Source: Chloroflexota bacterium (GTDB lineage: Bacteria > Chloroflexota > Anaerolineae > B4-G1). Taken from it: a DNA stretch of 11,333 nt. The DNA lies in NCBI GenBank assembly GCA_003648085.1, contig QMOC01000028.1, forward strand, positions 1 to 11,333, in the 5' to 3' direction. The position numbers and the translations under genes are program-made. This document shows, one piece after another, positions 1 through 11,119 of this stretch. Under the pieces are notes generated by a model. It saw only the letters and a list, made by a program, of their open reading frames with translations. It ran no database searches and was not told the DNA's origin. The first letter of the stretch is position 1, and every line of letters starts with the position of its first letter.

Positions 1-334
1 CGAGCAACAGGATGCCTACTTGTAGCGCCTCCTCCCGCTGGGCTGCCATCGTCTGGTATTCCTCGAAGCCGATGTCAAAGTACAGCGTCGGCAGATCGTT
101 GGCCTCAATGACCGTCTCCGCTGTACTATGCATTTCAGCAAACAGAGCCCGAACCGGCGGCTCGATGATCTTCCAGCCCTGCAGCCTGTACCAGGCGACG
201 CCACTAACAGCAATGAGGAATCCCAGGCTGACAGCCAGCAGGAGTTGGATCAACCCCTGTCGCGTCTGCACCCACCTTTTGGTCTCCAACCAGAAGGCGC
301 CACGATCAGAACGTTGCGAACCCTGTATGCGCAT
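1..334 (-). CDS. CotH-type protein, N-terminal part (runs off left edge)
   Basis: An open frame of 111 codons starts with ATG at 334 and reaches the window edge without a stop. It has a short charged N-terminus, one hydrophobic segment at about residues 28-48 (signal anchor or uncleaved signal peptide) and then LPTLYFDIGFEEYQ from residue 81. That last stretch resembles the start of the CotH domain, where a strand of this kind is followed by a helix and an R-[DE]-EAL-like segment (here QREEAL). CotH proteins include atypical secreted kinases acting on spore-coat proteins; in non-spore-formers their substrate is largely unknown. The ATG lies 3 nt after the stop of the DUF4956 gene and is preceded by AGGGAG at good spacing, so the two genes are surely cotranscribed. 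CotH next to DUF4956 is a known neighbourhood and supports the call. The kinase active site lies outside the window, so catalytic competence cannot be judged. The family call is an inference from a short stretch. Confidence 0.72.
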   Translation of the reverse strand, partial: MRIQGSQRSDRGAFWLETKRWVQTRQGLIQLLLAVSLGFLIAVSGVAWYRLQGWKIIEPPVRALFAEMHSTAETVIEANDLPTLYFDIGFEEYQTMAAQREEALQVGILLL

Positions 335-337
335 CGC

Positions 338-1018
338 CTAACTCCCTGGCATACTATTCTGGTCAACGAAACTAAAGGAACATCCAGGCACGGCATTCCT
401 CAAGTCATCAATCAGCCCAGCCAGCGCGTTCTGGTCTTTGCAGTCCAGGAAATAGGTCATCTGCAGCGTGTGGTCATGCCGGTCGAGCCGGCGCACATCT
501 ACGAGTTCAGCATGTTTGACCAAAATATCGTTGACGGTTCTAAACTCGTTCGCCTCTCCCGCGCCTCCCCCCCTTTCACGAACCTGGATATTCAGATACA
601 GGTTCCGGCGCTGGGAGCGCGGGGCAAACAGGCGGGTGGCAATCAGCAGGAGCATGATAATGCCAACCGCAACCAAGGTCGGAATCCGCTGATCGGCGCC
701 TAGACCGAGCCCAATGGCAATCGCCAGAAATAGATAAAGCAGTTCCTCGGGGTCTTTGATGGCGGTGCGGAACCGAACGATGGAGAGCGCCCCTACGAGT
801 CCCAATGACAACGCCAGGGAAGCCTTGACGACTGAGATAACCAGGGTGGTTATCAGGCTCAGCATAGGCAAGAGTCTGGCGAATTTACGTCGGTTGGACA
901 ATGCCTCACCAAATCGGGCGTAGTACCATGCCACAACCACCGAAAGGACGACACCTAACAGTAGATTAAGCACCAATGCGCTTACGGAAAGCGGTTCCAG
1001 GTTTATCAAGCCACCCAT
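338..1018 (-). CDS. DUF4956 family integral membrane protein
   Basis: This 226-residue protein has a membrane-embedded N-terminal half and a soluble C-terminal half. Hydrophobic segments lie at about residues 12-32, 50-75, 92-108 and 113-130. The hallmark is GALSIVRFRTAIKDPEEL at residues 76-93, the conserved core of DUF4956 proteins, followed by a Gly-rich membrane stretch. The tail, from about residue 140, alternates strands and helices (LYLNIQVRER, then a Gly/Ala/Glu linker, then a ferredoxin-like pattern), resembling a small ACT-like regulatory domain; that fold is a guess. The molecular function of DUF4956 is not established. It commonly sits beside CotH and VTC (polyphosphate-polymerase-like) genes, and here a CotH-like gene follows 3 nt later. 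The start is secure because AGGAGGT lies 7 nt upstream of the ATG. A 242-bp non-coding stretch separates it from the glycosyltransferase genes, so it probably begins its own transcription unit. Confidence 0.88.
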   Translation of the reverse strand: MGGLINLEPLSVSALVLNLLLGVVLSVVVAWYYARFGEALSNRRKFARLLPMLSLITTLVISVVKASLALSLGLVGALSIVRFRTAIKDPEELLYLFLAIAIGLGLGADQRIPTLVAVGIIMLLLIATRLFAPRSQRRNLYLNIQVRERGGGAGEANEFRTVNDILVKHAELVDVRRLDRHDHTLQMTYFLDCKDQNALAGLIDDLRNAVPGCSFSFVDQNSMPGS

Positions 1019-1260: not shown

Positions 1261-2796
1261 TTAGTGAGATAAGGCTTCAATTTGCGCCTCCAGAGCCTCC
1301 ACGCGGGCCTCCAGTTCGGCCTGGCGCTGGATGGAAGCGGTCCAGAGAGCGATGGCCCGCTGCATCCACTCGGCCATTCGGCGATTGAGGGCCACCTGCC
1401 GCTCGATCATCGGATCCAGGTAGGGCTCGCGCAGATGGGAGGTCAGGTTGCGTCGCACCCAGGCGATAAACGGCCCCAGCAAAGGCACTCTGGAGCGAAC
1501 CACGTAACCGCGCAGAGCAATGTCGCTTTGAGCCATGATCTCATCGCTGAGGATGCTCAAAACCAACTCATCCCGGGGGATGACGGGGGCCGGTTGTGTC
1601 TGTGCTTCCTCACCTGCCTCCGCTGCGGGTTGTATCTCCGCTTCCCTGCCCGCTTCCACTACGGGTTCGGGGGGGATTTCGGGTAGCGTGTGGGTTACGG
1701 CCTTCTCCACAATCTCGGCCAGATTGGCCTCATACCGTTCCAGGCTGAACGCTTGTACCCGCTCCAGGCCACGCTCGATGAGTGTCTGGCGCAGACCGGT
1801 ATCCCTCAGCACCGTCAGAACTTTTTCAGCCAGGTCATCGGCGCTGCCAGGCTCACAGAGCAGCCCGGCATCGCCCAGAACCCAGGGCATAGCGCCAGCG
1901 CGAGCGGCGACCACTGGCACGCCACAAGCCATAGCCTCTACCAGCGGCTGACCAAATCCTTCGTGCAGACTGGCGGTCACATAGACGTCAGCCAGGCGAA
2001 AGTAGGGAGGCAACTCGTCCACTCGACCAGTCCAGATTACGTCACGGGCAATCCCCAGTTCGGCAGCACGGGCTCGGGCGTCAGCGACGATCGGGCGGAA
2101 CGCCGGATTGCTCCGGTCGTCGCCGACCAGCAGCAACTTGGTGTTTGGTATCTGGCTCTTGACCCGCGCCAGCGCCTCGATCAGGATGTCAATCCGCTTG
2201 TTGCCCGCCATACGGCCCACAAAAAGCAATACCTGTTGCCCCTCCAATTCGTAGCGCTGAACCAGTTTCGGGTCCCTATCACCAGGGGTAAATTGTTCCA
2301 AAGCCACTGCCAGAGGCAAAACGCAAATTCGATCAGGAGCGTAGCCAAGACGGTCAACGAGGTCTTGTTTGTTGAAGGGGCTGGGGGTGATACACAAGTC
2401 GGCGTAGTGAACCAATGCACTGCCCTCGATGTCCCGCATCAGTGCATCGCGGCCGATGTCGCTCCCCCATAGTTCGGGCGGGGTGACGTTGTGATAGTAA
2501 AAGATCACCGTTCCCCGGTCAATGCCTCGGATGCTCTCCATCAATGCATGGCGGCCCGGATAGTGATAGATGTACAAATCAGATAAACGGAAGTGTTCCT
2601 CCTGCCCTTCGATCAACTCCCTCAACGTGACGACGCTCGTCACCTCCTCAATGTCAGTCGGCACATTGTGAGGAGGGTGGAGGACGTAGACGTGCACGTC
2701 GTCGCCACGGCGGCGGAAAAAATGCACCTGGTTGATGATGCACGTCCCAATGGCATCCTCAGCCACCAGATTCAGGTTAATCAGGCTAACTTTCAT
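1261..2796 (-). CDS. GT4-family glycosyltransferase with C-terminal RVP-YxxP-Q-N module
   Basis: This 511-residue protein has a GT-B fold typical of retaining family-4 glycosyltransferases, which transfer a sugar from an NDP-sugar to a growing lipid-linked glycan on the cytoplasmic membrane face. The N-terminal half includes YYHNVTPPELW (100-110). The donor-binding half shows LFVGRMAGNKR (191-201, with R195 and K200 as likely phosphate contacts) and the EX7E motif HEGFGQPLVEAMA (E279, E287). Residues 372-410 form a Pro/Glu/Ala-rich linker. The shared module follows (RVPLLG at 436 to N471), and the protein ends in a heptad-like coiled coil (491-509). AGGGGAAG upstream of the ATG gives a sound ribosome-binding site. 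It is the last gene of the glycosyltransferase run, 38 nt after the previous one. Its catalytic half resembles the GT4 at 7046-8116, so they may be paralogues. The sugar donor and acceptor cannot be told from sequence. Confidence 0.9.
   Translation of the reverse strand: MKVSLINLNLVAEDAIGTCIINQVHFFRRRGDDVHVYVLHPPHNVPTDIEEVTSVVTLRELIEGQEEHFRLSDLYIYHYPGRHALMESIRGIDRGTVIFYYHNVTPPELWGSDIGRDALMRDIEGSALVHYADLCITPSPFNKQDLVDRLGYAPDRICVLPLAVALEQFTPGDRDPKLVQRYELEGQQVLLFVGRMAGNKRIDILIEALARVKSQIPNTKLLLVGDDRSNPAFRPIVADARARAAELGIARDVIWTGRVDELPPYFRLADVYVTASLHEGFGQPLVEAMACGVPVVAARAGAMPWVLGDAGLLCEPGSADDLAEKVLTVLRDTGLRQTLIERGLERVQAFSLERYEANLAEIVEKAVTHTLPEIPPEPVVEAGREAEIQPAAEAGEEAQTQPAPVIPRDELVLSILSDEIMAQSDIALRGYVVRSRVPLLGPFIAWVRRNLTSHLREPYLDPMIERQVALNRRMAEWMQRAIALWTASIQRQAELEARVEALEAQIEALSH
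1384..1491 (-). other. Shared C-terminal module, copy 1 (in the GT4 at 1261-2796)
   Basis: Residues 436-471 of the host protein. The pattern is RVPLLG, eight residues, RR, then Y-L-D-P, four residues, Q, three residues, N. It lies after a low-complexity linker and before a coiled-coil tail. The same pattern recurs at 5672-5779 and 8206-8310 in two glycosyltransferases of other families. Confidence 0.8.
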
Positions 2797-2834
2797 TATT
2801 ATCTTCCCCTATTCTGAGTTTTTGGCTCATCCTC

Positions 2835-4079
2835 TCAGGCCTCCAGCGCCTCATCGTAGACCTGCTGCAAGCGATCGAGGTAGCGATCCAGGGTCATGTG
2901 GGTATGAGCGAACTCGACACAACGTCGGCGCATAGCCCGTCGCTCGGGAGCCGAGCGGGCGAAGTGCTGAATTACCCGCTCGGTCAGCGCGACCGCGTCA
3001 CCAGGGGAGAAAAGGTACCCGGTCTCTCCATGCTGGATCAATTCCGGGATGCCGCCTATCGCGGAACCCAGCACTGGTGTCCCGGCCAGCATACTCTCAT
3101 AGATCACCATAGGCGAATTTTCGTACCACACCGAGGGTATAACCGTCAGGTCGGTCGCGGCGTACAGCGCGCGCATCTCCTGAAAAGGCACCTGTCCCAG
3201 GAGTTTCACGACTGACGGATCGAAGCGCCGTAAGGCCGCCAAAAAGCGATCCTCCCCCCTACCGGCCACAAGCAGGCGGAAGCGATCCACATACCTGGCC
3301 AACAAGGGCAGTGCCTCGATAACGGTTTTGATTCCTTTGCTCTCGACCATCGCTCCGGCAAGCAATAGGGTGCGAAACAAGCCACTTTCTCGCACATATT
3401 CTCTCACGAGAGAATCGGAGGGGGTCTGGAACAACGCCGGTTTAATGCCGTTGGGCACGACGCGGAAGCGCGCAGGGTTGTAACCCGCTGCGACGTGCAA
3501 ATCAACCAACTTTTGGCTCGGTGAGATGAAGAAACGCACGTTTTGAACCAGGCGGGCGAAAATCTGACGTCGCCAGGGGATGTTGGCCCAAAAATCCTGT
3601 CGCCGGAAGCAGTGACTGCAACCCCTGGGATGCTCCGCCGGGTCACACAACGCTCCGTCGCCCTTGTAAAGCATGTTGTTGGGACAGAGCAACCAGTGGT
3701 CGTGGAGCGTGAGCAGCACGGGCACGTTCACCCGACGGCAGGCTACAAAAGGGGCCAGCGTAGCGCCAGAAACGTTATGGACGTGGACCAAATCGGGTTG
3801 GACACGCCGTATTTCGGCCATCACATCCCGATATATGCGCGGGTCAAAGGTCTGCAAGAATGGATTTCCAGGCAAGTGGGACCGATAGGTCACCTCGTGG
3901 ACCGGAACCCCCTGGACATCACGATACCGGTCCTGTCCGCCGGGTATGCGGGCGTTGATCATCAGGATGGAGGCATCCACCCCACGTTGGAGCAGGCCGT
4001 GGCAGGTGTTGTAGACCATAACCTCGGCTCCCCCTTGATAGTGAGGGGGAAAGTAGTTTGTGATCAGAAGAACGCGCAT
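2835..4079 (-). CDS. GT4-family glycosyltransferase with Cys-cluster insert
   Basis: This is a 414-residue GT-B enzyme. I chose the ATG at 4079 because MRVLLITNYFPPHYQGGAEV is the canonical GT4 N-terminus (first strand plus GG loop). The open frame extends to an upstream ATG at 4229, but the extra 50 residues are Arg/Pro-rich, match nothing and would overlap the previous gene by 127 nt. With the chosen start the gap is 23 nt. Landmarks are VHVHN (98-102), LHDHWLLCP (125-133), a Cys set C132/C145/C154/C157, SPSQK (186-190), VVPNGIKP (207-214), AGAMVESKGI (241-250, K248) and the EX7E region WYENSPMVIYES (E320, E328). The HDxWxxCP plus C-x8-C-x2-C arrangement is typical of one GT4 subgroup and might bind a metal (inference). 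It ends without the C-terminal module. It probably adds one residue of the glycan; the sugar is unknown. Confidence 0.88.
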   Translation of the reverse strand: MRVLLITNYFPPHYQGGAEVMVYNTCHGLLQRGVDASILMINARIPGGQDRYRDVQGVPVHEVTYRSHLPGNPFLQTFDPRIYRDVMAEIRRVQPDLVHVHNVSGATLAPFVACRRVNVPVLLTLHDHWLLCPNNMLYKGDGALCDPAEHPRGCSHCFRRQDFWANIPWRRQIFARLVQNVRFFISPSQKLVDLHVAAGYNPARFRVVPNGIKPALFQTPSDSLVREYVRESGLFRTLLLAGAMVESKGIKTVIEALPLLARYVDRFRLLVAGRGEDRFLAALRRFDPSVVKLLGQVPFQEMRALYAATDLTVIPSVWYENSPMVIYESMLAGTPVLGSAIGGIPELIQHGETGYLFSPGDAVALTERVIQHFARSAPERRAMRRRCVEFAHTHMTLDRYLDRLQQVYDEALEA

Positions 4080-4102
4080 CGCTCTTACCGGCGTGACCCG
4101 GT

Positions 4103-5389
4103 TTACCTGCTGCGGATCGAGCCATATCCGCGGGATGATGTAGAGGGTTTCTTCGCCCGGCCTCCTCTTCGACAGGCGCGCAGGGTTCGGAAATAGATGC
4201 CTTCCACCACGTCCGCGATACGGGAACATGTATAGCGGCTCAGCACCCGCCGGCGACCGCTTTCCCCCATCTGCCGCGCCAGGGCTGGAGAACTAATCCA
4301 GCGCTTCAGGGCCTCCCCGATCGCCCCTGGATCGTCGAGCGGGACCAGCCAGCCATCTTGCCCATCGCGAATCACGGTGGAGACGGCCGCCGTGCGCGGT
4401 CCTATGACCGGCTTGCCCACAATCCACGCTTCCAGGAAGACGATGCCGAAGGCCTCCCCCCGCGAAGGGAGCACCAGACAGTCGCAGGCGTTCAGCGCAT
4501 CCAGTCGCACGTCGTCGGATACGGCTCCCAGATTCACCACTCCCGGCAGGCCATCGTGACGGGCGAACAGTCGGCGGGAGTAGTCCGTCTCCGGCCCTAC
4601 AACGAGGAAGATCAGGTGCGGGTGACTCCTCCGCAGGGCGATGAAGGCCTCCAGTGCTGTTCCCAGCCCCTTGTACTCGACCTGGCGTCCTAGAAACAGC
4701 GTCACAAAAGCGTCCTCCGGCAGCCCCAGCCGCTGGCGACAGGCCGTTATATCCCTCATCGGGTACGCCTCCGGGCGCAGTCCGTTGCCTGCGGTCGTCA
4801 CGCGCCACGGATCCAGCCCCAATCCCAGCAAGAAGTTTCGCTCACCTTCCGTGACAGCGATAACGTGGTCACTGCCGCGCAACACGTCCAACTCGTAGCC
4901 GATACCATAGGTCACTTCCTGGCCAGCATGGGTGTGGGGAGTGACGACCACCGGGACCTGCCGCCAGCGCGCAGCCAGATAGCCGTAGGCGACGTGGCCG
5001 TAGACCAGGCAGTTCAGATGAACCAGGTCATATTGTGGCAGCCTTGCCAGCATTGCAGCGAACATACCAGGGCACAGCGGCCCGCCTCCGAACAGGATGA
5101 ACGGCTCGTACCAGCGGGAGCGGGTCTGCCAATACTTGCCCAGACTCCAATGCAACACGCGCCAGACAAATTCGGTGCGCCGCATGCTGCGGAACCGGTA
5201 CACGTTGACCCCATTCACGCGCTCACGGGGTCCCAGTTCGTCTTTCCAGGTATGGTAGTCCAGCGAACGACTGGTAAAGACGTCTACCTGGTGCCCCCGC
5301 GCTACCAGTTCTTCCGAGAGGTCGGCGATGTATTTCTCCGAGCCACCGATAGCAGGCGGGTACTGATGAGTCACGTGCAACACACGCAT
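4103..5389 (-). CDS. GT4-family glycosyltransferase
   Basis: This 428-residue protein has a standard GT-B, family-4 layout. MRVLHVTHQYPPAIGGSEKY (1-20) carries the first strand and the GG acceptor/phosphate loop. DLVHLN is at 121-126, VTPHTH at 149-154, AVTEGERN at 178-185, GNGLRPEAYP at 201-210, FLGRQVEYKG at 232-241 (R235, K240) and the EX7E motif GEAFGIVFLE at 311-320 (E312, E320). The last 25 or so residues are Arg/Lys/Ser-rich and unconserved in appearance, with no coiled coil and no copy of the shared module. The start ATG lies 3 nt after the stop of the GT2 gene, so translation is probably coupled. No membrane segment is evident; such enzymes usually attach peripherally to the cytoplasmic membrane. 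It likely adds a sugar to the lipid-linked glycan made by this cluster. Donor and linkage cannot be assigned. Confidence 0.9.
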   Translation of the reverse strand: MRVLHVTHQYPPAIGGSEKYIADLSEELVARGHQVDVFTSRSLDYHTWKDELGPRERVNGVNVYRFRSMRRTEFVWRVLHWSLGKYWQTRSRWYEPFILFGGGPLCPGMFAAMLARLPQYDLVHLNCLVYGHVAYGYLAARWRQVPVVVTPHTHAGQEVTYGIGYELDVLRGSDHVIAVTEGERNFLLGLGLDPWRVTTAGNGLRPEAYPMRDITACRQRLGLPEDAFVTLFLGRQVEYKGLGTALEAFIALRRSHPHLIFLVVGPETDYSRRLFARHDGLPGVVNLGAVSDDVRLDALNACDCLVLPSRGEAFGIVFLEAWIVGKPVIGPRTAAVSTVIRDGQDGWLVPLDDPGAIGEALKRWISSPALARQMGESGRRRVLSRYTCSRIADVVEGIYFRTLRACRRGGRAKKPSTSSRGYGSIRSR

Positions 5390-5392
5390 ACC

Positions 5393-6907
5393 CTACGTCT
5401 TCTCGTCGTGTCCTGTGGACAACGCCCTGGTCAACGCAGCCAGGCGCTCGGCCAGTTCGTTGATCTCGCGGATATTCTCCTCCACATCACGCAACTGGCC
5501 CTGCAGGAGACGCCCGTGCTCCGTGGAACGTTGCTCCAGTTGATCGGTGCGCCGACTGACCCAGCCAATGAGTTCGCCGTGCTGCTCCAGGGCCTGGCCG
5601 TGTCTTGCCAGGATATAGTCGTGCTGCCCCAACCGGTCTTGCAGGGCTTTTAGATAGCCGACCACCTGGGCGTTAAAAATATTCTGTTGCTGGATGAGGG
5701 GGCGCACATACCACCTGACGGCAACGCTGCTCCACAGACGACGTAAGGCGACGATTAACCCGCCCACTATAGGCACCCGCGAGGCGAAGGGTGGCTCACG
5801 GATCTCCCGCCCGGCTTCAAGTTTGGCCGGCAGTCGTGCCCCTCGTCTCTCCCCCTGGTCGGCCTCTCGTTCCGCTTCAGGTTCTGCTCTGGAAGAGTGG
5901 CGCAGCGGTGGAGGCTCGTGGGGCACAGGGGCCAGCGACCGGTTGGCCTGCAGGTCTGCCAGGCCGGACATAGCCGCAGCCCGCAGATCGGTCAGCAGAC
6001 CGACCAGGGCATCGGCCTCCTCCTCCGAACTCTGGCGAAAAGCCAGAATATCGGGTAGAGCCAGAACTGTGCTCAGATAGGCCCGCCGCGCAGCCATCAG
6101 CTCCACCGTGCGCTCCAGGTGAGCCGCCCATGCCCGCTCGGCCGGTACGAACTCTCCCTCCAATCGCTCCAGTGTCCAATGTTTGAAGACAAAGCGCAGG
6201 CGTCCCCGATGCAGAGCATACTTGTGCTCGTGGCTCTCGCGCTGAGCCATTTGAGACTCGTAGTGGATCAAGCGGGCCACAGGCACGTAAACGACGCGGA
6301 AGCCGGCCTCGCGGACGGTGTAGCACCAGTCTACATCCTCGTAGTAGGCGGGATAGAAACCCTCATCGAGCAGACCCACGCGCTTCAGAGCGGTCCGGGA
6401 GATGGCCAACGCCGCTCCGGTGACGAAATCAGCGTCGCGCATCTGATCGAAGCGGCCATCGTCGGGTTCGTGGCGGCCAATGTGGTCCGTCTCGGCGCGG
6501 GGGCCATAGATGAAGCCCCCGGCGTGCTGGATGGAGCCGTCAGGGTAGAGCGCCTTACAACCGGCGATGCCGACAGAGGGATCCTGGAAAGTGTCCACCA
6601 GCGCCTCAAGCCATCCCTGCCGCACGACTGTGTCCTGATTGAGCAGCACCAACACGTCCCCCGTAGCAGCGCGCAGCCCGACGTTGTTGCCTGCCGCGAA
6701 GCCCAGGTTGCGCTCGTTGCGGATCAACTGCACCTGGGGGTAACACTGCGCCACGAAGTCCGCTGAGCCATCGGTTGAGCCGTTGTCCACGACGATGACC
6801 TCAAAAGCGGGATAGCCTTGGGCCAGCACTGCGCTCAGGCAGGCGTCCAGATACGCCATGCCGTTCCAGGCCAGGACAATCACCGATGCTTTAGGCTGTG
6901 CACTCAT
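5393..6907 (-). CDS. GT2-family glycosyltransferase (rhamnosyltransferase-like) with C-terminal module and long coiled coil
   Basis: This 504-residue protein starts with an inverting GT-A domain (about 1-250). Landmarks are SVIVLAWNG (8-16), VVDNGSTDGS (39-48), RNLGFAAGNNVG (66-77), LLNQDT (88-93; NQD in the metal-binding DXD position), FVTGAALAISR (161-171) and YYEDVDWC (188-195), with the acidic pair before the acceptor site. This subclass includes WbbL-type rhamnosyltransferases, but the sugar is uncertain. Helical segments and a charged linker (about 330-372) follow, then the shared module (RVPIVG at 377 to N412) and about 80 residues of probable coiled coil (418-496). The total is far longer than a plain GT2 of about 300 residues. 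AAGGA six nt before the ATG supports the start. Upstream lies the 138-bp hairpin-bearing spacer; downstream the next gene begins after 3 nt. No transmembrane helix is seen. Confidence 0.92.
   Translation of the reverse strand: MSAQPKASVIVLAWNGMAYLDACLSAVLAQGYPAFEVIVVDNGSTDGSADFVAQCYPQVQLIRNERNLGFAAGNNVGLRAATGDVLVLLNQDTVVRQGWLEALVDTFQDPSVGIAGCKALYPDGSIQHAGGFIYGPRAETDHIGRHEPDDGRFDQMRDADFVTGAALAISRTALKRVGLLDEGFYPAYYEDVDWCYTVREAGFRVVYVPVARLIHYESQMAQRESHEHKYALHRGRLRFVFKHWTLERLEGEFVPAERAWAAHLERTVELMAARRAYLSTVLALPDILAFRQSSEEEADALVGLLTDLRAAAMSGLADLQANRSLAPVPHEPPPLRHSSRAEPEAEREADQGERRGARLPAKLEAGREIREPPFASRVPIVGGLIVALRRLWSSVAVRWYVRPLIQQQNIFNAQVVGYLKALQDRLGQHDYILARHGQALEQHGELIGWVSRRTDQLEQRSTEHGRLLQGQLRDVEENIREINELAERLAALTRALSTGHDEKT
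5672..5779 (-). other. Shared C-terminal module, copy 2 (in the GT2 at 5393-6907)
   Basis: Residues 377-412 of the host. RVPIVG, eight residues, RR, then Y-V-R-P, four residues, Q, three residues, N. It is 36 residues long, the same as copy 1, and sits between a charged linker and a long coiled coil. The host is a GT-A enzyme, a fold unrelated to that of the other two hosts. Confidence 0.8.
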
Positions 6908-7045
6908 CCCGCGTCCTTATCTAGTTCTCGGTACGAAACAGGGTTGGAGGCCCGGCTTCAGCCGGGAGAACCCCGACGAACCGGGGCTTCCGTCGAGTCT
7001 TGTATCGCAAACTATCTACATCCTCGCGCCGGCGGCACCTGCTCC
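6908..7045. other. 138-bp intergenic spacer between two glycosyltransferase genes
   Basis: This is the only sizeable gap inside the glycosyltransferase run. It holds two adjacent hairpins (6951-6986) and the Shine-Dalgarno AAGGA of the GT2 gene. I found no convincing promoter, and no U-run follows the hairpins on the minus strand, so read-through is likely. The hairpins may set relative expression of the two halves of the operon. Confidence 0.6.
6951..6986. repeat. REP-like twin hairpin
   Basis: CCCGGC-TTCA-GCCGGG (6951-6966) is a perfect 6-bp stem with a 4-nt loop. Four nt on, CCCCG/CGGGG (6971-6986) forms a second stem around a 6-nt loop. An alternative pairing of CGACG (6974-6978) with CGTCG (6991-6995) competes with the second stem. 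The GGCTTCAGCC core resembles GACTTCAGTC and GGCTAAAGCC in the array at 1126-1231, so both spacers may carry members of one dispersed repeat family. Confidence 0.65.
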
Positions 7046-8116
7046 TCACGCTCCGAGGTCCTTCATAAGTAACCTCAAGTGCTCCTCAACCCTTTCGGGC
7101 AGAAAATCCCGCAGCCGCTCGCGCTGCCGGGCGATGATTTGGGACCGCAGATGCACATCCTCAACCAGCAGCCCGATCAACTCTGCCACCGCCGCATGGT
7201 CTTTAACCGTCACCAAAATGCCGCTGCCGCCCAACGTCTCGGGCACGGCAGCCGCTTTATAAGCGATGACGGGCACCCCGAAGTGCATACTCTCCAGCAA
7301 CGGTATGCCAAACCCCTCGTGCTCGCTCATGCTGAGATAGACGCTGGCACACCGATAGTAAGCCACTAATTGTGAATCGCCCACGTGGCCGGTGAACACC
7401 ACATCCGACAAACTCAGGCGCTCCACTAATGCCCGCAGAAACTCAAGGTAGGGCTCCATCCCCTGCGCCGATCCCACCAGCAGAAGCCGGGCATCCGGTC
7501 GCACGAGACGCTTGAGGTAATGGAACGTCAGGATCAGGTCCTCAAACCGCTTGTTGGGAGAGACGCGCCCCACGAACAGAACGTTCACACCATCTCGCCA
7601 CCGCTTCAGCACTTTCCGGTCCGGCCGGGCGGTGTAACGCCTCGGATCGAAGATAATAGGCAGAACGCCAAGACGGCTCCATCCCCGCCCCGCCAGTTCC
7701 TGGCAGTTGAACTTCGAGACCCCCCATCCTGCCTCAGCCAGCGTCCTCAGCCGATCCAACTGTTCACGTCCTGCTTGCGCGGCCTGGAGGTAGGCATCGT
7801 TGACACCCGCGAAGTAAGCGGACGGTGTGATGTTGTGATAGACCACTACTTTGCGGTCTGGAATCTGCTCCAACCAGGCCATCACCTCCGCCGAGTAGCG
7901 CAGGGAGAAGTGCAGCAGCAATATATTCGCCGGCGATGAATAGCGGGCATACTGCGCAATTGGCCGCGCACGGCCCGCGAAGTGGAGAGGTAGACGCTCA
8001 CAGAATATCTCGCTGCGATGCCCCATGCGTCGCAGCAGGCGCTGGAGGCTTAGAATCTGGTTGCTAACCGCATCTCCGTAGGAAACCGTGGGATGGAACT
8101 GATGCACCCCACTCAT
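7046..8116 (-). CDS. GT4-family glycosyltransferase
   Basis: This 356-residue enzyme is a compact GT-B protein. The N-terminal half contains FHPTVSYGDAVSNQ (7-20) in place of the usual GG loop, and VVVYHNITPSAYF (90-102). The donor half has LFVGRVSPNKR (180-190; R184, K189), LLLVGSAQG (211-219) and the EX7E region EHEGFGIPLLESMHFG (265-280; E267, E275). YHNITP and VGRVSPNKR closely match YHNVTP and VGRMAGNKR of the GT4 at 1261-2796, so the two are probable paralogues, but this one stops right after the catalytic fold with no linker, module or coiled coil. The start ATG overlaps the stop of the preceding gene in an ATGA junction, a sign of translational coupling. No membrane segment is visible. 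It likely adds one sugar to the same lipid-linked glycan; the donor is unknown. Confidence 0.9.
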   Translation of the reverse strand: MSGVHQFHPTVSYGDAVSNQILSLQRLLRRMGHRSEIFCERLPLHFAGRARPIAQYARYSSPANILLLHFSLRYSAEVMAWLEQIPDRKVVVYHNITPSAYFAGVNDAYLQAAQAGREQLDRLRTLAEAGWGVSKFNCQELAGRGWSRLGVLPIIFDPRRYTARPDRKVLKRWRDGVNVLFVGRVSPNKRFEDLILTFHYLKRLVRPDARLLLVGSAQGMEPYLEFLRALVERLSLSDVVFTGHVGDSQLVAYYRCASVYLSMSEHEGFGIPLLESMHFGVPVIAYKAAAVPETLGGSGILVTVKDHAAVAELIGLLVEDVHLRSQIIARQRERLRDFLPERVEEHLRLLMKDLGA

Positions 8117-9756
8117 TTTAGCCCGACTCTTTGGAATTCCTCGATCTCTCGACGCAGACGCATATTCTCCCGTGCCAGGTCGTTGAGCGCCTGCATCACT
8201 TTTCGATTGAAACTCGACTGCTTCTCTAACGAAGGGAACAAGTAGCGGCGAATCTCCGCGTTGATGATCCGCCGTACCACGGCGTGAACGGGACCCAAGA
8301 TCGGTACCCTCCAGTCAATCACATAATGGCGCGGCACGATGTCGCAATCACGCTGCCGGATTGAAATATGCCCTTCTCCTTCACCACCGATCATCTCCTT
8401 CCAGAGATCCTCGGCAATGTCCTCTGGTCTCTCAATCTCCCCAGACGGGGAAGTACCGTCAGCGTGAGCGCTTCTCTCACGAATCCGGCGCTCAATCTCC
8501 TCGGCATTGATGCTCTCATCAGGGATCTCGAGCCAATCCAACATAGCCTTCCTATCCGGGGCGCGGCGGGGGTGACGGCAGAACTCGATCAGGGGCCGCG
8601 CAGCCTTCTCCCACGTCAGATCCCGCCGGGCTTGCTCAAATCCCTCACGGAAGGTCTCCTCGGGCGCGACCAGCAGCCGAAGGATGGCCTCCGCAACGCC
8701 TTCTACATCCTCGTAATCCATAACGGCTCCCAGGTCATATCGCTCCACCACTCCGCTGGTGGCATCTCCCCGCGTCACCACCATCGGCAGTCCGGCCCAG
8801 ATGTAATCCAGCACCCGACTGCGGAAGGCCAAGCGGGCTTCGACGGTGTCGAAATGCAACGAAAGCCCTACGTCTGCTTCCACCAGGTAGTTGGGCCACT
8901 CCTCGTAGGAGACCCAATCGCCGAAAAACACGTGCCGGTCCAAAAGGCCCAGTTCCTCGGCCAGCCGAACGGCGGCCTGGTGTATCGGCATGTCGGGAAC
9001 GGCCTCTGTGTTGGGATGACGGGTGCCGGGGAAGACTAACTTCACGTCGTCACGCCGCTCCCGGATTTGCGCCATCGCCCGGATCGCCGTGAGAGGGTCG
9101 AGCCACTGCCACAATCCCCCGCCCCACAGCGCCACCTTGTCCTCCGGCCCGATGCCCGGCCACACCCCTTTCAGCACCTGCCGGGTGTGGCGCGGCGGTG
9201 ACGAGGGCAGACCAAAGGGCACTACATCTATCAACCGCCGCAATGACGGGTCCTCGCCGTAGGTGTGGACATTGACCCGTCCGGCGGCCTCCAGCAACCC
9301 CAGCCACCAATCCCGCTGCCGCTCGCTGGCGCAGACAAAGAAATCGCCGACCCGACATTGCATCTGCAAGATACGCTCCCGCTCCCGATGCTTGTGCTCC
9401 TGTTCAGGTGTTCCGGCGAACAGTTCCAGCGTCTCCAGTGGATGCGGATCGTAGCCGTCCACAATCAGGGGGATCCCGACCCTCTCCAGCATCGGGAACC
9501 AGGCCAGCACGTCTCCGCATAACAAAATGGCCTCCGTCCCCTCCACTGCCGGAGCCAGAGAGTCCCACCGACCAGGCTCGTAGGAGCATAAGCGGACATC
9601 GGCTGCGGGCAGTTGCGGATCGCCAGGGGCGGCCAGAGTGACCTGGAAAGGCCGGGCCAACACACGGGCCAGTTCCCAATAGCGAATACCCGGCCCGGCC
9701 ATACGGGGGCCTACGACGTCGTGGCTGATGATCAGAACGGAGGTACGCTTACTCAC
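8113..9756 (-). CDS. Divergent GT-B glycosyltransferase with C-terminal module
   Basis: This 547-residue protein begins SVLIISHDVVGPRMAGPGIR (6-25), a GT-B first strand followed by a Gly-rich loop. It continues with VDGYDPHPLE (99-108), VVPFGLPSSP (178-187), LWGGGLWQWLDPLTAI (210-225), FFGDWVSYEEWPNYL (277-291) and a donor-site helix near SRVLDYIWAGLPMVVTRGD (313-331). A clear EX7E pair is missing at the usual place, so it belongs to a divergent GT4-like subgroup often found next to Wzt/Wzm genes; that link is from memory. After about residue 400 comes a charged linker, then the shared module (RVPILG at 483 to N517) and a coiled-coil-like tail (520-543). It starts at GTG (9756), overlapping the end of the ABC gene by 8 nt, with a G-rich ribosome-binding site inside that gene. 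It overlaps the next gene by 4 nt. Function as a glycosyltransferase is well supported; substrate is not. Confidence 0.83.
   Translation of the reverse strand: MSKRTSVLIISHDVVGPRMAGPGIRYWELARVLARPFQVTLAAPGDPQLPAADVRLCSYEPGRWDSLAPAVEGTEAILLCGDVLAWFPMLERVGIPLIVDGYDPHPLETLELFAGTPEQEHKHRERERILQMQCRVGDFFVCASERQRDWWLGLLEAAGRVNVHTYGEDPSLRRLIDVVPFGLPSSPPRHTRQVLKGVWPGIGPEDKVALWGGGLWQWLDPLTAIRAMAQIRERRDDVKLVFPGTRHPNTEAVPDMPIHQAAVRLAEELGLLDRHVFFGDWVSYEEWPNYLVEADVGLSLHFDTVEARLAFRSRVLDYIWAGLPMVVTRGDATSGVVERYDLGAVMDYEDVEGVAEAILRLLVAPEETFREGFEQARRDLTWEKAARPLIEFCRHPRRAPDRKAMLDWLEIPDESINAEEIERRIRERSAHADGTSPSGEIERPEDIAEDLWKEMIGGEGEGHISIRQRDCDIVPRHYVIDWRVPILGPVHAVVRRIINAEIRRYLFPSLEKQSSFNRKVMQALNDLARENMRLRREIEEFQRVGLK
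8206..8310 (-). other. Shared C-terminal module, copy 3 (in the GT-B at 8113-9756)
   Basis: Residues 483-517 of the host. RVPILG, eight residues, RR, then Y-L-F-P, four residues, Q, three residues, N. It is one residue shorter than the other copies, between RR and Y. A charged linker precedes it and a heptad-like tail follows. Confidence 0.8.
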
Positions 9757-11119
9757 TCATCCCCCCGCCGTTCCACTCCCATTTCCCCCCCAGGCTCACC
9801 AGCCCGTACCGTTCGCCTTTCCCTACCTGGCGCACTTTGAAGGGGTAAAGACGGTCGTGGTAATCGTACATCACCGTATCGGCCCGGTTGTGGGCCGAGA
9901 CCGAGACGAGATATGTGCCCTCCATCAACGGAAGGTGATCTACGCAGTACAGGATGTCCCCCTCGCCTTCGACGAAAGGGATGTCCAGGCCGGCGAAGTG
10001 GGTGTTGGGGCCGCACACGTGCAGGCCGTCGTTCCGATGGACGGCCAGGCCAAAGACAGGACTCTCGACCCGCTGCTGGGCTCGATAGTGCAGCCGCACC
10101 ACCCACGGCTCTCCCACCTGAAACACGTGCCGTTCTGCCCCGGCCGCATCGAGGAAGGAGACATCCATAATCTCTATGTCCCCCGTCCCCCACCGTTGCT
10201 TCACCTCGGGCTCTTCCTCTTCTTCCTCCTGTGCTTCCTGCTGTGCCTCCTCGACCTCCTCCGAAAGGGGCTCAGCCTGTGAAGGGGCTTCTTCCTGAGA
10301 CGCGGCAGCCTTCATACGGGCCTCTTCCTCGGCCGCTGCGTGGCGCAGATATGCCGAAATGGTGTCCTCAACGTCGCCCGCAGCCCGAATCGCACCATCA
10401 TCCAGCCAGATGGCGTGGGAACATAGCCGGCGAACTGCCCCCAGGTCATGCGAGACGAAGCATATTGTGACGCCCTGCTGCTGTATCTCCATGATGCGTT
10501 CGAGGCACTTGTGCTGGAAGTTCTGGTCTCCCACCGCCAGCACCTCGTCCACCAGCAAGATCTCCGGGTCGGTGTGCACCGCTACGGAGAACCCCAGTCG
10601 CACGTACATGCCCGACGAGTAGTGCTTCACCGGCACGTCAATGAAACGCTCCAATTCCGCAAAGGCGATGATCTCATCCAGTTTACGCTGGATCTGAGCC
10701 CTGCTCAGCCCCAGAATGGAGCCGTTTAGATAGATGTTCTCCCGCCCGGTCAGGTCGGGATGGAAGCCGGCGCCCAGTTCCAGCAGCGCTCCCACCCGCC
10801 CCTTGACCTCGATCCGGCCTGAGGTGGGTTCGATGATGCGGGAGATGAGTTTAAGCACCGTGCTCTTGCCTGCTCCGTTAGGACCGATGATGCCCACCGT
10901 CTCACCCGGCGTGACCTCGAAACTGACGTCGCGCAGCGCCCAGAACTCTTCGGGCTGGCCATTATCCCTGCGCTGGGGGAAACTCAGTATCAATTCCTGC
11001 AAGGAGCGAGGACGCCCCTGGTGCAGAACGAAGCGCTTCGATACACTGTCAAACCGAATGGCTGCTTCCACGGTCTTCTCACCACCACCCGTCAAAACGG
11101 CGGCGTTGTCAGCCGCCAT
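9749..11119 (-). CDS. wzt: Polysaccharide ABC exporter ATPase, Wzt type with C-terminal glycan-binding domain
   Basis: This 456-residue protein powers export of a finished lipid-linked glycan through a Wzm permease. The ATPase domain spans about 20-260: Walker A GPNGAGKST (79-87), the family's characteristic signature HYSSGMYVRLGFS (166-178), Walker B ILLVDE (187-192) and switch His in SHD (H224). Residues 262-306 are a Glu/Ala-rich linker with a run of Glu near 298-303. From about 309 a beta-rich domain begins with RWGTGDIEIMDV, as in Wzt C-terminal domains that recognise the modified non-reducing end of the O-antigen. The annotated ATG (11119) lacks a clear ribosome-binding site; a GTG at 11071 (residue 17, VEAAIRF) has GGTGAG six nt upstream and begins where family proteins usually begin, so it is a strong alternative. 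It is the first gene after a candidate promoter. No Wzm permease gene is in the window. Confidence 0.93.
   Translation of the reverse strand: MAADNAAVLTGGGEKTVEAAIRFDSVSKRFVLHQGRPRSLQELILSFPQRRDNGQPEEFWALRDVSFEVTPGETVGIIGPNGAGKSTVLKLISRIIEPTSGRIEVKGRVGALLELGAGFHPDLTGRENIYLNGSILGLSRAQIQRKLDEIIAFAELERFIDVPVKHYSSGMYVRLGFSVAVHTDPEILLVDEVLAVGDQNFQHKCLERIMEIQQQGVTICFVSHDLGAVRRLCSHAIWLDDGAIRAAGDVEDTISAYLRHAAAEEEARMKAAASQEEAPSQAEPLSEEVEEAQQEAQEEEEEEPEVKQRWGTGDIEIMDVSFLDAAGAERHVFQVGEPWVVRLHYRAQQRVESPVFGLAVHRNDGLHVCGPNTHFAGLDIPFVEGEGDILYCVDHLPLMEGTYLVSVSAHNRADTVMYDYHDRLYPFKVRQVGKGERYGLVSLGGKWEWNGGGMSE
11078..11083 (-). promoter_or_regulatory. Shine-Dalgarno candidate for an internal GTG start of the Wzt gene
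   Basis: GGTGAG on the minus strand, six nt before GTG at 11071-11069, in frame. The ATG at 11119 has only A/T-rich sequence without a purine core before it. If this site is used, the protein is 440 residues and starts close to the first conserved strand. Confidence 0.45.

What the first reader, a model, noticed from the sequence alone, without database searches (positions are those of the whole stretch)
1261..9756. One short C-terminal module shared by three unrelated glycosyltransferases of the same cluster
The GT4 (1261-2796), the GT2 (5393-6907) and the divergent GT-B (8113-9756) have catalytic domains of different families, yet all carry the same module near the C-terminus: R-V-P-[IL]-[LV]-G, eight residues, R-R, eight or nine residues, then Y-x-x-P-x4-Q-x3-N. 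Spacing is identical in all copies except for one residue between RR and Y. Each copy follows a variable charged linker and precedes a heptad-like tail. The three remaining glycosyltransferases (2835, 4103, 7046) end right after their catalytic fold. The module has an amphipathic, basic look (RVP...RR). It could be a membrane-interface anchor, an oligomerisation element or a docking tag that gathers enzymes into one assembly complex. I recall similar RxP...YxxPxxxQxxxFN tails on other glycan-cluster enzymes, including methyltransferases, but know of no named domain or assigned function.
Basis: partly seen in the sequence, partly recalled or inferred. Interest (0 to 1): 0.82.

Follow-up and report, generated by a model that had tools for sequence, protein, structure and literature searches.

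The report
Shared helical docking tail on glycan-building enzymes
Three sugar-adding enzymes in this gene cluster carry versions of one unnamed helical tail that, in related bacteria, also exists as small separate proteins encoded mostly just before particular sugar-adding enzymes, which suggests an assembly or anchoring system for building surface sugars.

Summary
A profile built without the window finds the module in the three named proteins (E 3e-27, 1e-25, 4e-21) and in none of the other four tested. No Pfam or NCBIfam match above cut-off was listed over it, and no solved-structure sequence matched significantly. It is not a local quirk: 116 of 395 genomes of the class carry it. Copies fall into six homologous subtypes (A-F); the window's are A, B and C. 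Beyond glycosyltransferases it sits on methyltransferases, sulfotransferases and many small separate proteins. Those mostly lie directly upstream of glycosyltransferase genes (61 of 68 pairs), and subtype predicts the glycosyltransferase family: 56 of 67 in the set that suggested the rule, 31 of 40 (16.2 expected) in loci fetched after the rule was written down. In the window a whole subtype-C protein is fused in frame to the divergent GT-B and still precedes its usual neighbour, GT4d. The module is predicted to start one long helix with a heptad-like pattern and polar Gln/Asn positions. Best reading: an amphipathic coiled-coil adaptor that oligomerises and gathers glycan enzymes at the membrane. 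Binding, membrane association and specificity are inferred, not shown.

The parts
1384..1491 (-). Module subtype A in GT4a (residues 436-471)
   Evidence: leave-window-out profile E 3.2e-27; 34 other A copies
1264..1383 (-). C-terminal tail of GT4a after the module
   Evidence: sequence; heptad power not significant in this protein alone (p 0.14)
1261..2796 (-). GT4a, GT4 glycosyltransferase carrying subtype A
   Evidence: PF13692 7.9e-36
5672..5779 (-). Module subtype B (B1) in GT2 (residues 377-412)
   Evidence: E 1.4e-25
5396..5671 (-). Predicted coil tail of GT2 (residues 413-504)
   Evidence: AF2 helix 382-503, block pLDDT 65-88 over 401-490; heptad power p 0.0008
5393..6907 (-). GT2 glycosyltransferase carrying subtype B
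   Evidence: PF13641 8.8e-30; GT-A-fold matches such as ppGalNAcT2 in PDB
8206..8310 (-). Module subtype C in GTB (residues 483-517)
   Evidence: E 4e-21
8113..8544 (-). Whole subtype-C adaptor (residues 405-547) fused in frame to the C-terminus of GTB
   Evidence: aligns end to end with stand-alone C proteins of L018, L071, L098, L121, L129; AF2 helices 14-30, 40-53, 83-141
8473..8538 (-). N-terminal helix box of the C adaptor (DWLEIPDESINAEEIERRIRER)
   Evidence: aligned with the stand-alone C starts; similar boxes seen by eye in many D and B2 proteins, though a strict pattern matched only 11 of 78 stand-alone proteins
8547..8553 (-). Shine-Dalgarno-like AGGAAGG just before the internal ATG (8542-8544)
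   Evidence: a match this good precedes about 3% of 1,639 internal in-frame ATGs; the four stand-alone C starts checked score lower
8113..9756 (-). GTB: divergent GT-B glycosyltransferase fused to the C adaptor
   Evidence: PF13692 7.8e-10; C fusion in 1 of 120 listed homologues, the window's own
7046..8116 (-). GT4d, no module; starts 4 nt inside the end of GTB[C]
   Evidence: ORF overlap; 5 of 8 stand-alone C genes are directly followed by a GT4d-like gene
4103..5389 (-). GT4c, no module
   Evidence: no module by profile
2835..4079 (-). GT4b, no module (likely start Met51; the longer ORF reaches 4229)
9749..11119 (-). Wzt-type ABC transporter ATPase with Wzt_C glycan-binding domain
   Evidence: PF14524 1.4e-29

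Best explanation
The module is the first part of one long helix that continues into a coiled coil (predicted). Its first half (about 22 residues, RVPxxGPLIAxxRRxWNxVxxRWY), rich in Trp, Tyr and Arg in the window copies, probably lies on the membrane surface. Its second half (PLxxQQxxFN...) starts the coil, with a conserved Gln and Asn at core positions that likely fix register and partner choice. In this phylum the element forms a family of adaptors, either separate small proteins encoded mostly just upstream of particular glycosyltransferases or fused to glycosyltransferases, methyltransferases and sulfotransferases. I infer that the adaptors oligomerise and hold their enzymes together at the inner face of the membrane, next to the exporter of an ABC-transporter-dependent glycan. 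Shown: presence, subtypes, homology between subtypes, subtype-to-neighbour pairing, fusions, association with Wzt_C genomes. Predicted: helix and coil. Inferred: oligomerisation, membrane contact, physical binding to the neighbouring enzyme.
For: Module in 116 of 395 class genomes and 71 of 400 phylum genomes, own genome included in both. Six subtypes, all mutually alignable by profile (79-99% probability, one-on-one). 61 of 68 next genes of stand-alone copies are glycosyltransferases; subtype and next-gene cluster share 1.32 bits, null mean 0.47, null maximum 0.80 in 20,000 shuffles. Fixed rule: 56 of 67 in that set, then 31 of 40 against 16.2 expected (p<=1e-5) in loci fetched after the rule was noted. 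Module-bearing genes precede 28 of 47 GT4d genes but 0 of 25 Wzt and 0 of 18 GTB genes. B1+GT4 in one ORF in L053 and L108; A and B2 are neighbours in L050, L083, L098 and L129 but one ORF in L040 and L116. Over the 141 of 167 copies with Q-x3-N, hydrophobic residues fall at -7, -3, +7, +11, +14, +18, +21, +25, +28 (fractions 0.51-0.94), a heptad with Gln at d and Asn at a. AF2 of the C adaptor: one helix 83-141, block pLDDT 86-98 over 81-140. Wzt_C in 108 of 116 module-positive and 169 of 279 module-negative genomes, p 4e-12 (cross-table counted by hand).
Against: No complex was modelled: only single chains could be folded and no coordinates were seen. In GT2 the module itself is low confidence (371-401 below pLDDT 50); pTM of the C model is 0.40. 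The family-wide hydrophobic periodicity peaks at 3.6 residues (power 0.44), ordinary helix, rather than at 3.5 (0.36), although 39 positions cannot separate them well. Window copies have net charge +4 to +6, but the family means over the whole matched stretch are only +0.5 (B) to +4.2 (E). The helical moment of the first half is moderate (0.48 in GT2); in GT4a and GTB the strongest moment lies in the tail. Adjacency and fusion can follow from operon linkage without binding. Wzt_C is also in 61% of module-negative genomes, and a Wzt gene lies in the fetched stretch in only 29 of 80 module loci (21 of 39 of 15 kb or more), many contigs being short. Pairing is not one-to-one: D precedes two GT4 clusters, and B1 and E share one.
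Confidence: 0.55

Rival explanations
1. Plain homo-oligomerisation: each enzyme or adaptor makes its own dimer or trimer through the coil, with no cross-talk between different proteins of the cluster. (The rivals overlap with the best reading and with each other, so the odds do not sum to one.)
For: Heptad-like pattern with Gln/Asn positions; WbdD trimerises through its helix (PMC3482155, passages); 'one of each subtype per locus' is only weakly suggested (p 0.048 and 0.058), and A and D are often duplicated (8 loci each).
Against: Does not explain stand-alone proteins without catalytic domain, the link between subtype and next gene, or A+B2 ORFs (L040, L116).
Confidence: 0.25
2. Dedicated subunit or activator: each small protein binds and stabilises the one GT encoded after it, as Alg14 anchors Alg13 (recalled); the coil is incidental.
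For: Stand-alone copies mostly sit directly upstream of specific GT clusters; B1+GT4 ORFs (L053, L108).
Against: The same module is also fused to GT2, GT4, methyltransferases and sulfotransferases; GT2[B1] is the commonest single arrangement (36 of 162 ORFs), though B is favoured by the subtype-B scan that supplied 35 of the loci.
Confidence: 0.25
3. Membrane-interface anchor only, like the amphipathic helix of PglH or PimA; specificity comes from the catalytic domains.
For: Basic, aromatic first half in the window copies and no transmembrane-grade hydrophobicity; PglH precedent (PMC5792488, passages); family periodicity peaks at 3.6.
Against: Discrete subtypes tied to particular GTs, conserved Gln/Asn in the coil half and low mean net charge in subtype B are not expected of a generic lipid anchor.
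Confidence: 0.2
4. Chain-length ruler: the coil sets a distance between polymerase and terminator, as in WbdD.
For: Wzt_C exporter next door; 3 of 42 type-E hits bear the source name 'O-antigen chain-terminating methyltransferase'.
Against: The window's tails are short (about 30-90 residues) and sit on GTs rather than terminators; 50 of 80 loci have two or more copies.
Confidence: 0.1

Closest known systems
WbdD-type chain terminators of ABC-transporter-dependent O antigens (E. coli O9a, K. pneumoniae O3/O4/O7)
   Different: Here several enzymes and separate small proteins each carry a homologous element; the amphipathic part precedes the coil; no terminator domain on the window's three.
Docking domains of modular polyketide/non-ribosomal synthases (recalled)
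   Same: Short terminal helices on many enzymes, in subtypes, that would pair partners.
   Different: Different enzymes, no shared family match listed; pairing here is inferred from gene order only.
Alg13/Alg14 (recalled)
   Same: A non-catalytic partner encoded apart from a soluble GT.
   Different: No Alg14 domain listed by Pfam in the ten adaptors scanned; predicted helical (C adaptor); several subtypes; often fused to other enzymes.
PglH ruler helix / PimA amphipathic helix
   Same: Basic amphipathic helix at the membrane (PMC5792488, passages only).
   Different: That helix is inside the catalytic GT-B fold; here it is an add-on outside it.

Membership tests
WbdD-type scaffold/terminator | Terminating catalytic domain (methyltransferase/kinase) on the coiled-coil protein | tested here: not met
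   Window carriers are GT4, GT2 and a GT-B; in relatives some carriers are methyltransferases
WbdD-type scaffold/terminator | Long coiled coil | tested here: inconclusive
   Helix and heptad-like pattern predicted, but short, periodicity peak 3.6; oligomer state unknown
WbdD-type scaffold/terminator | Amphipathic membrane helix C-terminal to the coil | tested here: not met
   The candidate amphipathic part lies N-terminal to the coil
WbdD-type scaffold/terminator | Belongs to an ABC-transporter-dependent glycan cluster | tested here: met
   Wzt with Wzt_C directly upstream in the window; genome-level association; no transporter permease gene lies inside the window
WbdD-type scaffold/terminator | Recruits a polymerase GT | not testable with these tools
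   needs binding experiments
Any Pfam-A or NCBIfam family | Model match over the module above the curated cut-off | tested here: not met
   None listed above cut-off over the module in the three window proteins or in ten adaptors; NCBIfam list for GT4a capped at 25 of 37
Any solved structure | Significant sequence or fold match over the module | tested here: not met
   Best sequence E 0.51 and 0.43, generic coiled coils; best Foldseek E 3.5 for the C adaptor
PKS/NRPS docking domains | Sequence relation to known docking families | tested here: not met
   No such Pfam/NCBIfam family listed at E<=1 for ten adaptors
Alg14 | Alg14 domain | tested here: not met
   Not listed at E<=1 for ten adaptors

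The most novel reading that the evidence does not exclude
A phylum-wide docking code for glycan assembly: homologous but distinct coiled-coil adaptors (A-F), each dedicated to one or two glycosyltransferase families, pair selectively with one another and so fix which enzymes stand next to each other, and in what order, at the exporter. Clusters evolve by swapping adaptor-plus-enzyme cassettes, as in the window, where a C+GT4d cassette appears to have been inserted behind GTB and its adaptor fused to it.
Probability: 0.25. Interest if true: 0.88.

Novelty: new variant of a known kind. Interest (0 to 1): 0.64.

Why it matters
How soluble glycosyltransferases are ordered into a pathway is an open question in bacterial glycan assembly. 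A small, separable element in defined subtypes, present both as free proteins and as fusions, would give a direct handle on it: partner choice could be read from sequence and tested with short peptides. It also gives a profile for annotating unnamed small proteins in Chloroflexota glycan clusters and suggests which glycosyltransferase each serves.

Tried and rejected
Rejected or weakened. (1) 'One of each subtype per locus', a strict hetero-oligomer: same-subtype pairs were only slightly rarer than chance (23 of 145 against 31.0, p 0.048; 30 of 145 against 38.5 without splitting B, p 0.058), and A and D are each duplicated in 8 loci. (2) Module confined to three proteins: rejected. (3) Known Pfam, NCBIfam, PHROG or PDB family: none convincing (weak sub-threshold coil-like hits exist, e.g. 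DUF6384 E 0.0013 and NF053609 E 0.0004, both far below cut-off). (5) Spread on plasmids: a type-E peptide had no match. (6) A region search with the GT2 module found only itself among 10 candidates; the tool needs exact 5-residue words. (7) AF2 of GT2 leaves the module uncertain; folding GTB whole was dropped because the alignment put the C adaptors over the catalytic domain.

Limits. The rule and the B1/B2 split were made after seeing the first set. In that set 78 stand-alone ORFs under 260 aa carried one module; 68 had a usable next gene, 6 had none and 4 were followed by another module protein. No B2 occurred in the second set, so B2->GT4d is not replicated. In set 2, 5 of 60 stretches were dropped as overlapping set 1; 4 stand-alone ORFs had no neighbour, 1 was followed by another module protein, and 2 type-A had no prediction; one counted hit is weak (L164, 73 bits), and some set-2 loci come from genomes already used in set 1. 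Genes are stop-to-stop ORFs, not curated calls. Of 162 module ORFs, 86 matched none of my nine catalytic seeds, but at least one, L080, is a methyltransferase. Many of the weaker phylum hits cover only the coil half (model positions about 28-58). Permutation tests ignore phylogenetic relatedness.

Literature. Eight searches listed no paper that I recognised as describing this module; I saw listings, plus passages of PMC11231755, PMC3482155 and PMC5792488. The library is open-licence PMC only.
Full report
What was claimed. Three glycosyltransferases of one cluster share a short C-terminal module. I call the proteins GT4a (1261-2796), GT4b (2835-4229), GT4c (4103-5389), GT2 (5393-6907), GT4d (7046-8116), GTB (8113-9756) and Wzt (9749-11119), all on the minus strand; these labels are mine.

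Check. The modules lie at the stated residues. With the window's copies removed, a profile of 34 modules from other genomes scores GT4a 3.2e-27, GT2 1.4e-25 and GTB 4.0e-21, and gives nothing below 0.5 in GT4b, GT4c, GT4d or Wzt. In the window's own genome (83% complete) only these three copies are convincing; two further listed places have E 0.4 and 0.8. The spacing G to RR is six residues, not eight. GT4a and GTB both match PF13692 and PF00534, so they are distant relatives of one fold; GT2 is different.

Distribution. 36 of 99 genomes searched among relatives (E<=0.01), 116 of 395 genomes of the class (E<=1e-4, completeness >=80) and 71 of 400 of the phylum carry it, the own genome counted in each; many weaker phylum hits cover only the coil half. 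A scan of one genome for each of 84,980 species with a subtype-B pattern matched 41 stretches, 37 confirmed, in 35 loci. The titles name Chloroflexi/Chloroflexota, Chloroflexia, Anaerolineae, Anaerolineaceae, Thermoflexales, Ardenticatenaceae, Dehalococcoidia, Chloroheliaceae or Oscillochloris, except one plain 'bacterium'. This pattern covers subtype B only, so it does not prove that other phyla lack the rest. A protein search with a type-E region over 5.8 billion proteins gave 42 hits; the four whose shown names include an organism are all Chloroflexi or Anaerolineae. A plasmid search found nothing.

Subtypes. In 82 non-redundant loci, chosen because they matched (80 with a module by the final profiles), I found 167 copies: A 35, B 78, C 6, D 35, E 10, F 3. 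Marker stretches: A NLTSHLREPYLDP, B WNxVSTRWYVxP, C RRxINAEIRRYL, D FYVNRLAxxQ, E RRLLRWYINPIVEQQN, F RRLTWWF. Profile-profile comparison links every pair of subtypes at 79-99% probability, one-on-one. Reversed ORFs gave 0 hits below 1e-4.

Carriers. Of 162 module ORFs, 36 are GT2 with B1 and 19 GT4 with A; others are methyltransferases, FkbM-type methyltransferases and GTB, and 86 match none of my nine catalytic seeds (at least one of these, L080, is a methyltransferase). Among 42 type-E proteins, the query's own record included, 35 have methyltransferase Pfam domains, 4 a sulfotransferase domain and 3 none; P0129 has two E modules. Of the module ORFs, 78 are under 260 aa with one module and no catalytic match. 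Some of them have an N-terminal helix box resembling EIxDPEIDxEEIMxxIRxRIxxRR; I saw this by eye, and a strict pattern matched only 11 of the 78.

Neighbours. Stand-alone modules mostly sit directly upstream of glycosyltransferase genes, often overlapping them: 61 of the 68 with a usable next gene. Clustering the next genes, subtype and cluster share 1.32 bits of information against 0.47 on average and at most 0.80 in 20,000 shuffles. I then wrote down the rule B2->0, C->0, D->0/1, B1->2, E->2, F->3 and fetched 60 further stretches, of which 55 were new. 31 of 40 stand-alone ORFs obeyed, against 16.2 expected (p<=1e-5); misses were D 2, B1 4, C 1, E 2; B2 did not occur. By the same rule the first set, from which the rule came, gives 56 of 67. 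Module-bearing genes directly precede 28 of 47 GT4d genes (16 more follow a GT4c), 32 of 55 weakly matching GT4, 28 of 72 GT4c, 7 of 25 GT4a-like, 4 of 23 GT4b, 5 of 57 GT2, 2 of 7 FkbM, 0 of 7 methyltransferase, 0 of 25 Wzt and 0 of 18 GTB. One-ORF combinations follow the same lines: B1+GT4 in L053 and L108, A+B2 in L040 and L116.

The window's special case. In GTB the tail from Met405 aligns end to end with stand-alone C proteins, N-terminal box included. Just before that ATG lies AGGAAGG; a match this good precedes about 3% of 1,639 internal in-frame ATGs, and the four stand-alone C starts checked score lower, so it is suggestive only. Of 120 listed GTB homologues only the window's own protein carries C; two others (P0102, P0119) are GTB+GT2 proteins with a B module, and nearly all of the 59 others that I aligned and read end in their own tail (EIARLRxLVxGYExGRFIRLMKWLH) or run into another domain after the same point. 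C stays next to GT4d: the GTB[C] stop overlaps the GT4d start by 4 nt. Of 8 stand-alone C genes in the two sets, 5 are directly followed by a GT4d-like gene (L018, L098, L129, L142, L147), L071 by a cut GT4d fragment, L121 by a methyltransferase-like gene and then GT4d, and L170 by a cluster-1 gene. In L105 and L110 the order is Wzt, (methyltransferase), GTB, GT2[B], GT4b, GT4c, GT4[A]; L090 shows the GT2[B]-to-GT4[A] part, and L048 the same part with Wzt directly before it and no GTB. The window has GT4c before GT4b. The simplest history is that a C+GT4d cassette landed between GTB and GT2[B] and C fused to GTB (inference).

Structure. AF2 of GT2 (15 aligned sequences) gives a confident catalytic domain, a low-confidence module and a helix 382-503. 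AF2 of the C adaptor (20 aligned sequences, pTM 0.40) gives helices 14-30, 40-53 and 83-141, the last with block pLDDT 86-98 up to residue 140. Across 141 of 167 copies (those with Q-x3-N, so Gln and Asn are invariant here by selection; in the earlier 37-row alignment Gln and Asn were invariant without that selection) the hydrophobic positions follow a heptad with Gln at a d and Asn at an a position, although the periodicity peaks at 3.6 rather than 3.5. Buried polar core residues often set register and partner choice in coiled coils (general knowledge). Sequence and fold searches of solved structures give no significant match for the module; for GT2 as a whole the best fold matches are GT-A-fold enzymes such as ppGalNAcT2.

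Context. Wzt_C is found in 108 of 116 module-positive and 169 of 279 module-negative genomes (Fisher p 4e-12; hand cross-table, computed); genome size and relatedness were not controlled. 75 of 80 module loci have at least one glycosyltransferase gene and 58 at least three; 29 show a Wzt gene in the fetched stretch. WbdD provides the precedent of a membrane-associated coiled-coil scaffold that recruits a glycosyltransferase (PMC11231755 and PMC3482155, passages).

Conclusion. The element is real, widespread in the phylum, unnamed in the libraries searched and tied to glycan clusters. A selective docking code is possible (0.25). Membrane contact and binding are untested.

Noticed in passing
window 2835-4229 (-): The GT4b ORF overlaps GT4c by 127 nt; the likely true start is Met51 at about 4079 (MRVLLITNYFPP).
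   Followed up: no
window 338-1018 and 2-334 (-): A DUF4956 membrane protein (PF16316) follows the cluster, next to another apparently membrane-anchored ORF cut by the window edge.
   Followed up: no
GTB homologues P0003-P0061: Nearly all of the 59 homologues read end in their own tail, a short coil plus a basic stretch (GYExGRFIRLMKWLH), or run into another domain; the window protein has the C adaptor instead.
   Followed up: partly
P0129; P0130, P0132, P0147, P0159: A 283-residue protein with two type-E modules and no Pfam domain, and four type-E proteins with a sulfotransferase domain (C-terminal module seen in P0130 and P0132).
   Followed up: partly
L052:11671-12834: One ORF with three type-A modules in tandem and no Pfam domain at E<=0.001.
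   Followed up: partly
L050, L072, L083, L098 type-A ORFs: The stretch before the A module looks, by eye, like a decayed half of a GT4; no Pfam match in the L072 ORF, though its duplicate in L040 scores 88 bits to the GT4 profile.
   Followed up: no
L125:10222-10791: The N-terminal box of a type-D protein weakly matches NF047736, LIC_10202 family (E 0.0064, far below cut-off).
   Followed up: no
L084:9524-11467: A repeat-rich protein resembling FG-GAP/VCBS types (by eye) is encoded just upstream of the stand-alone C gene.
   Followed up: no
L172, L174, L175, L176, L178: In five genomes of the phylum outside the class, type-A modules sit in ORFs over 1,000 residues long that match GT4 profiles (Pfam checked for L176 only).
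   Followed up: partly
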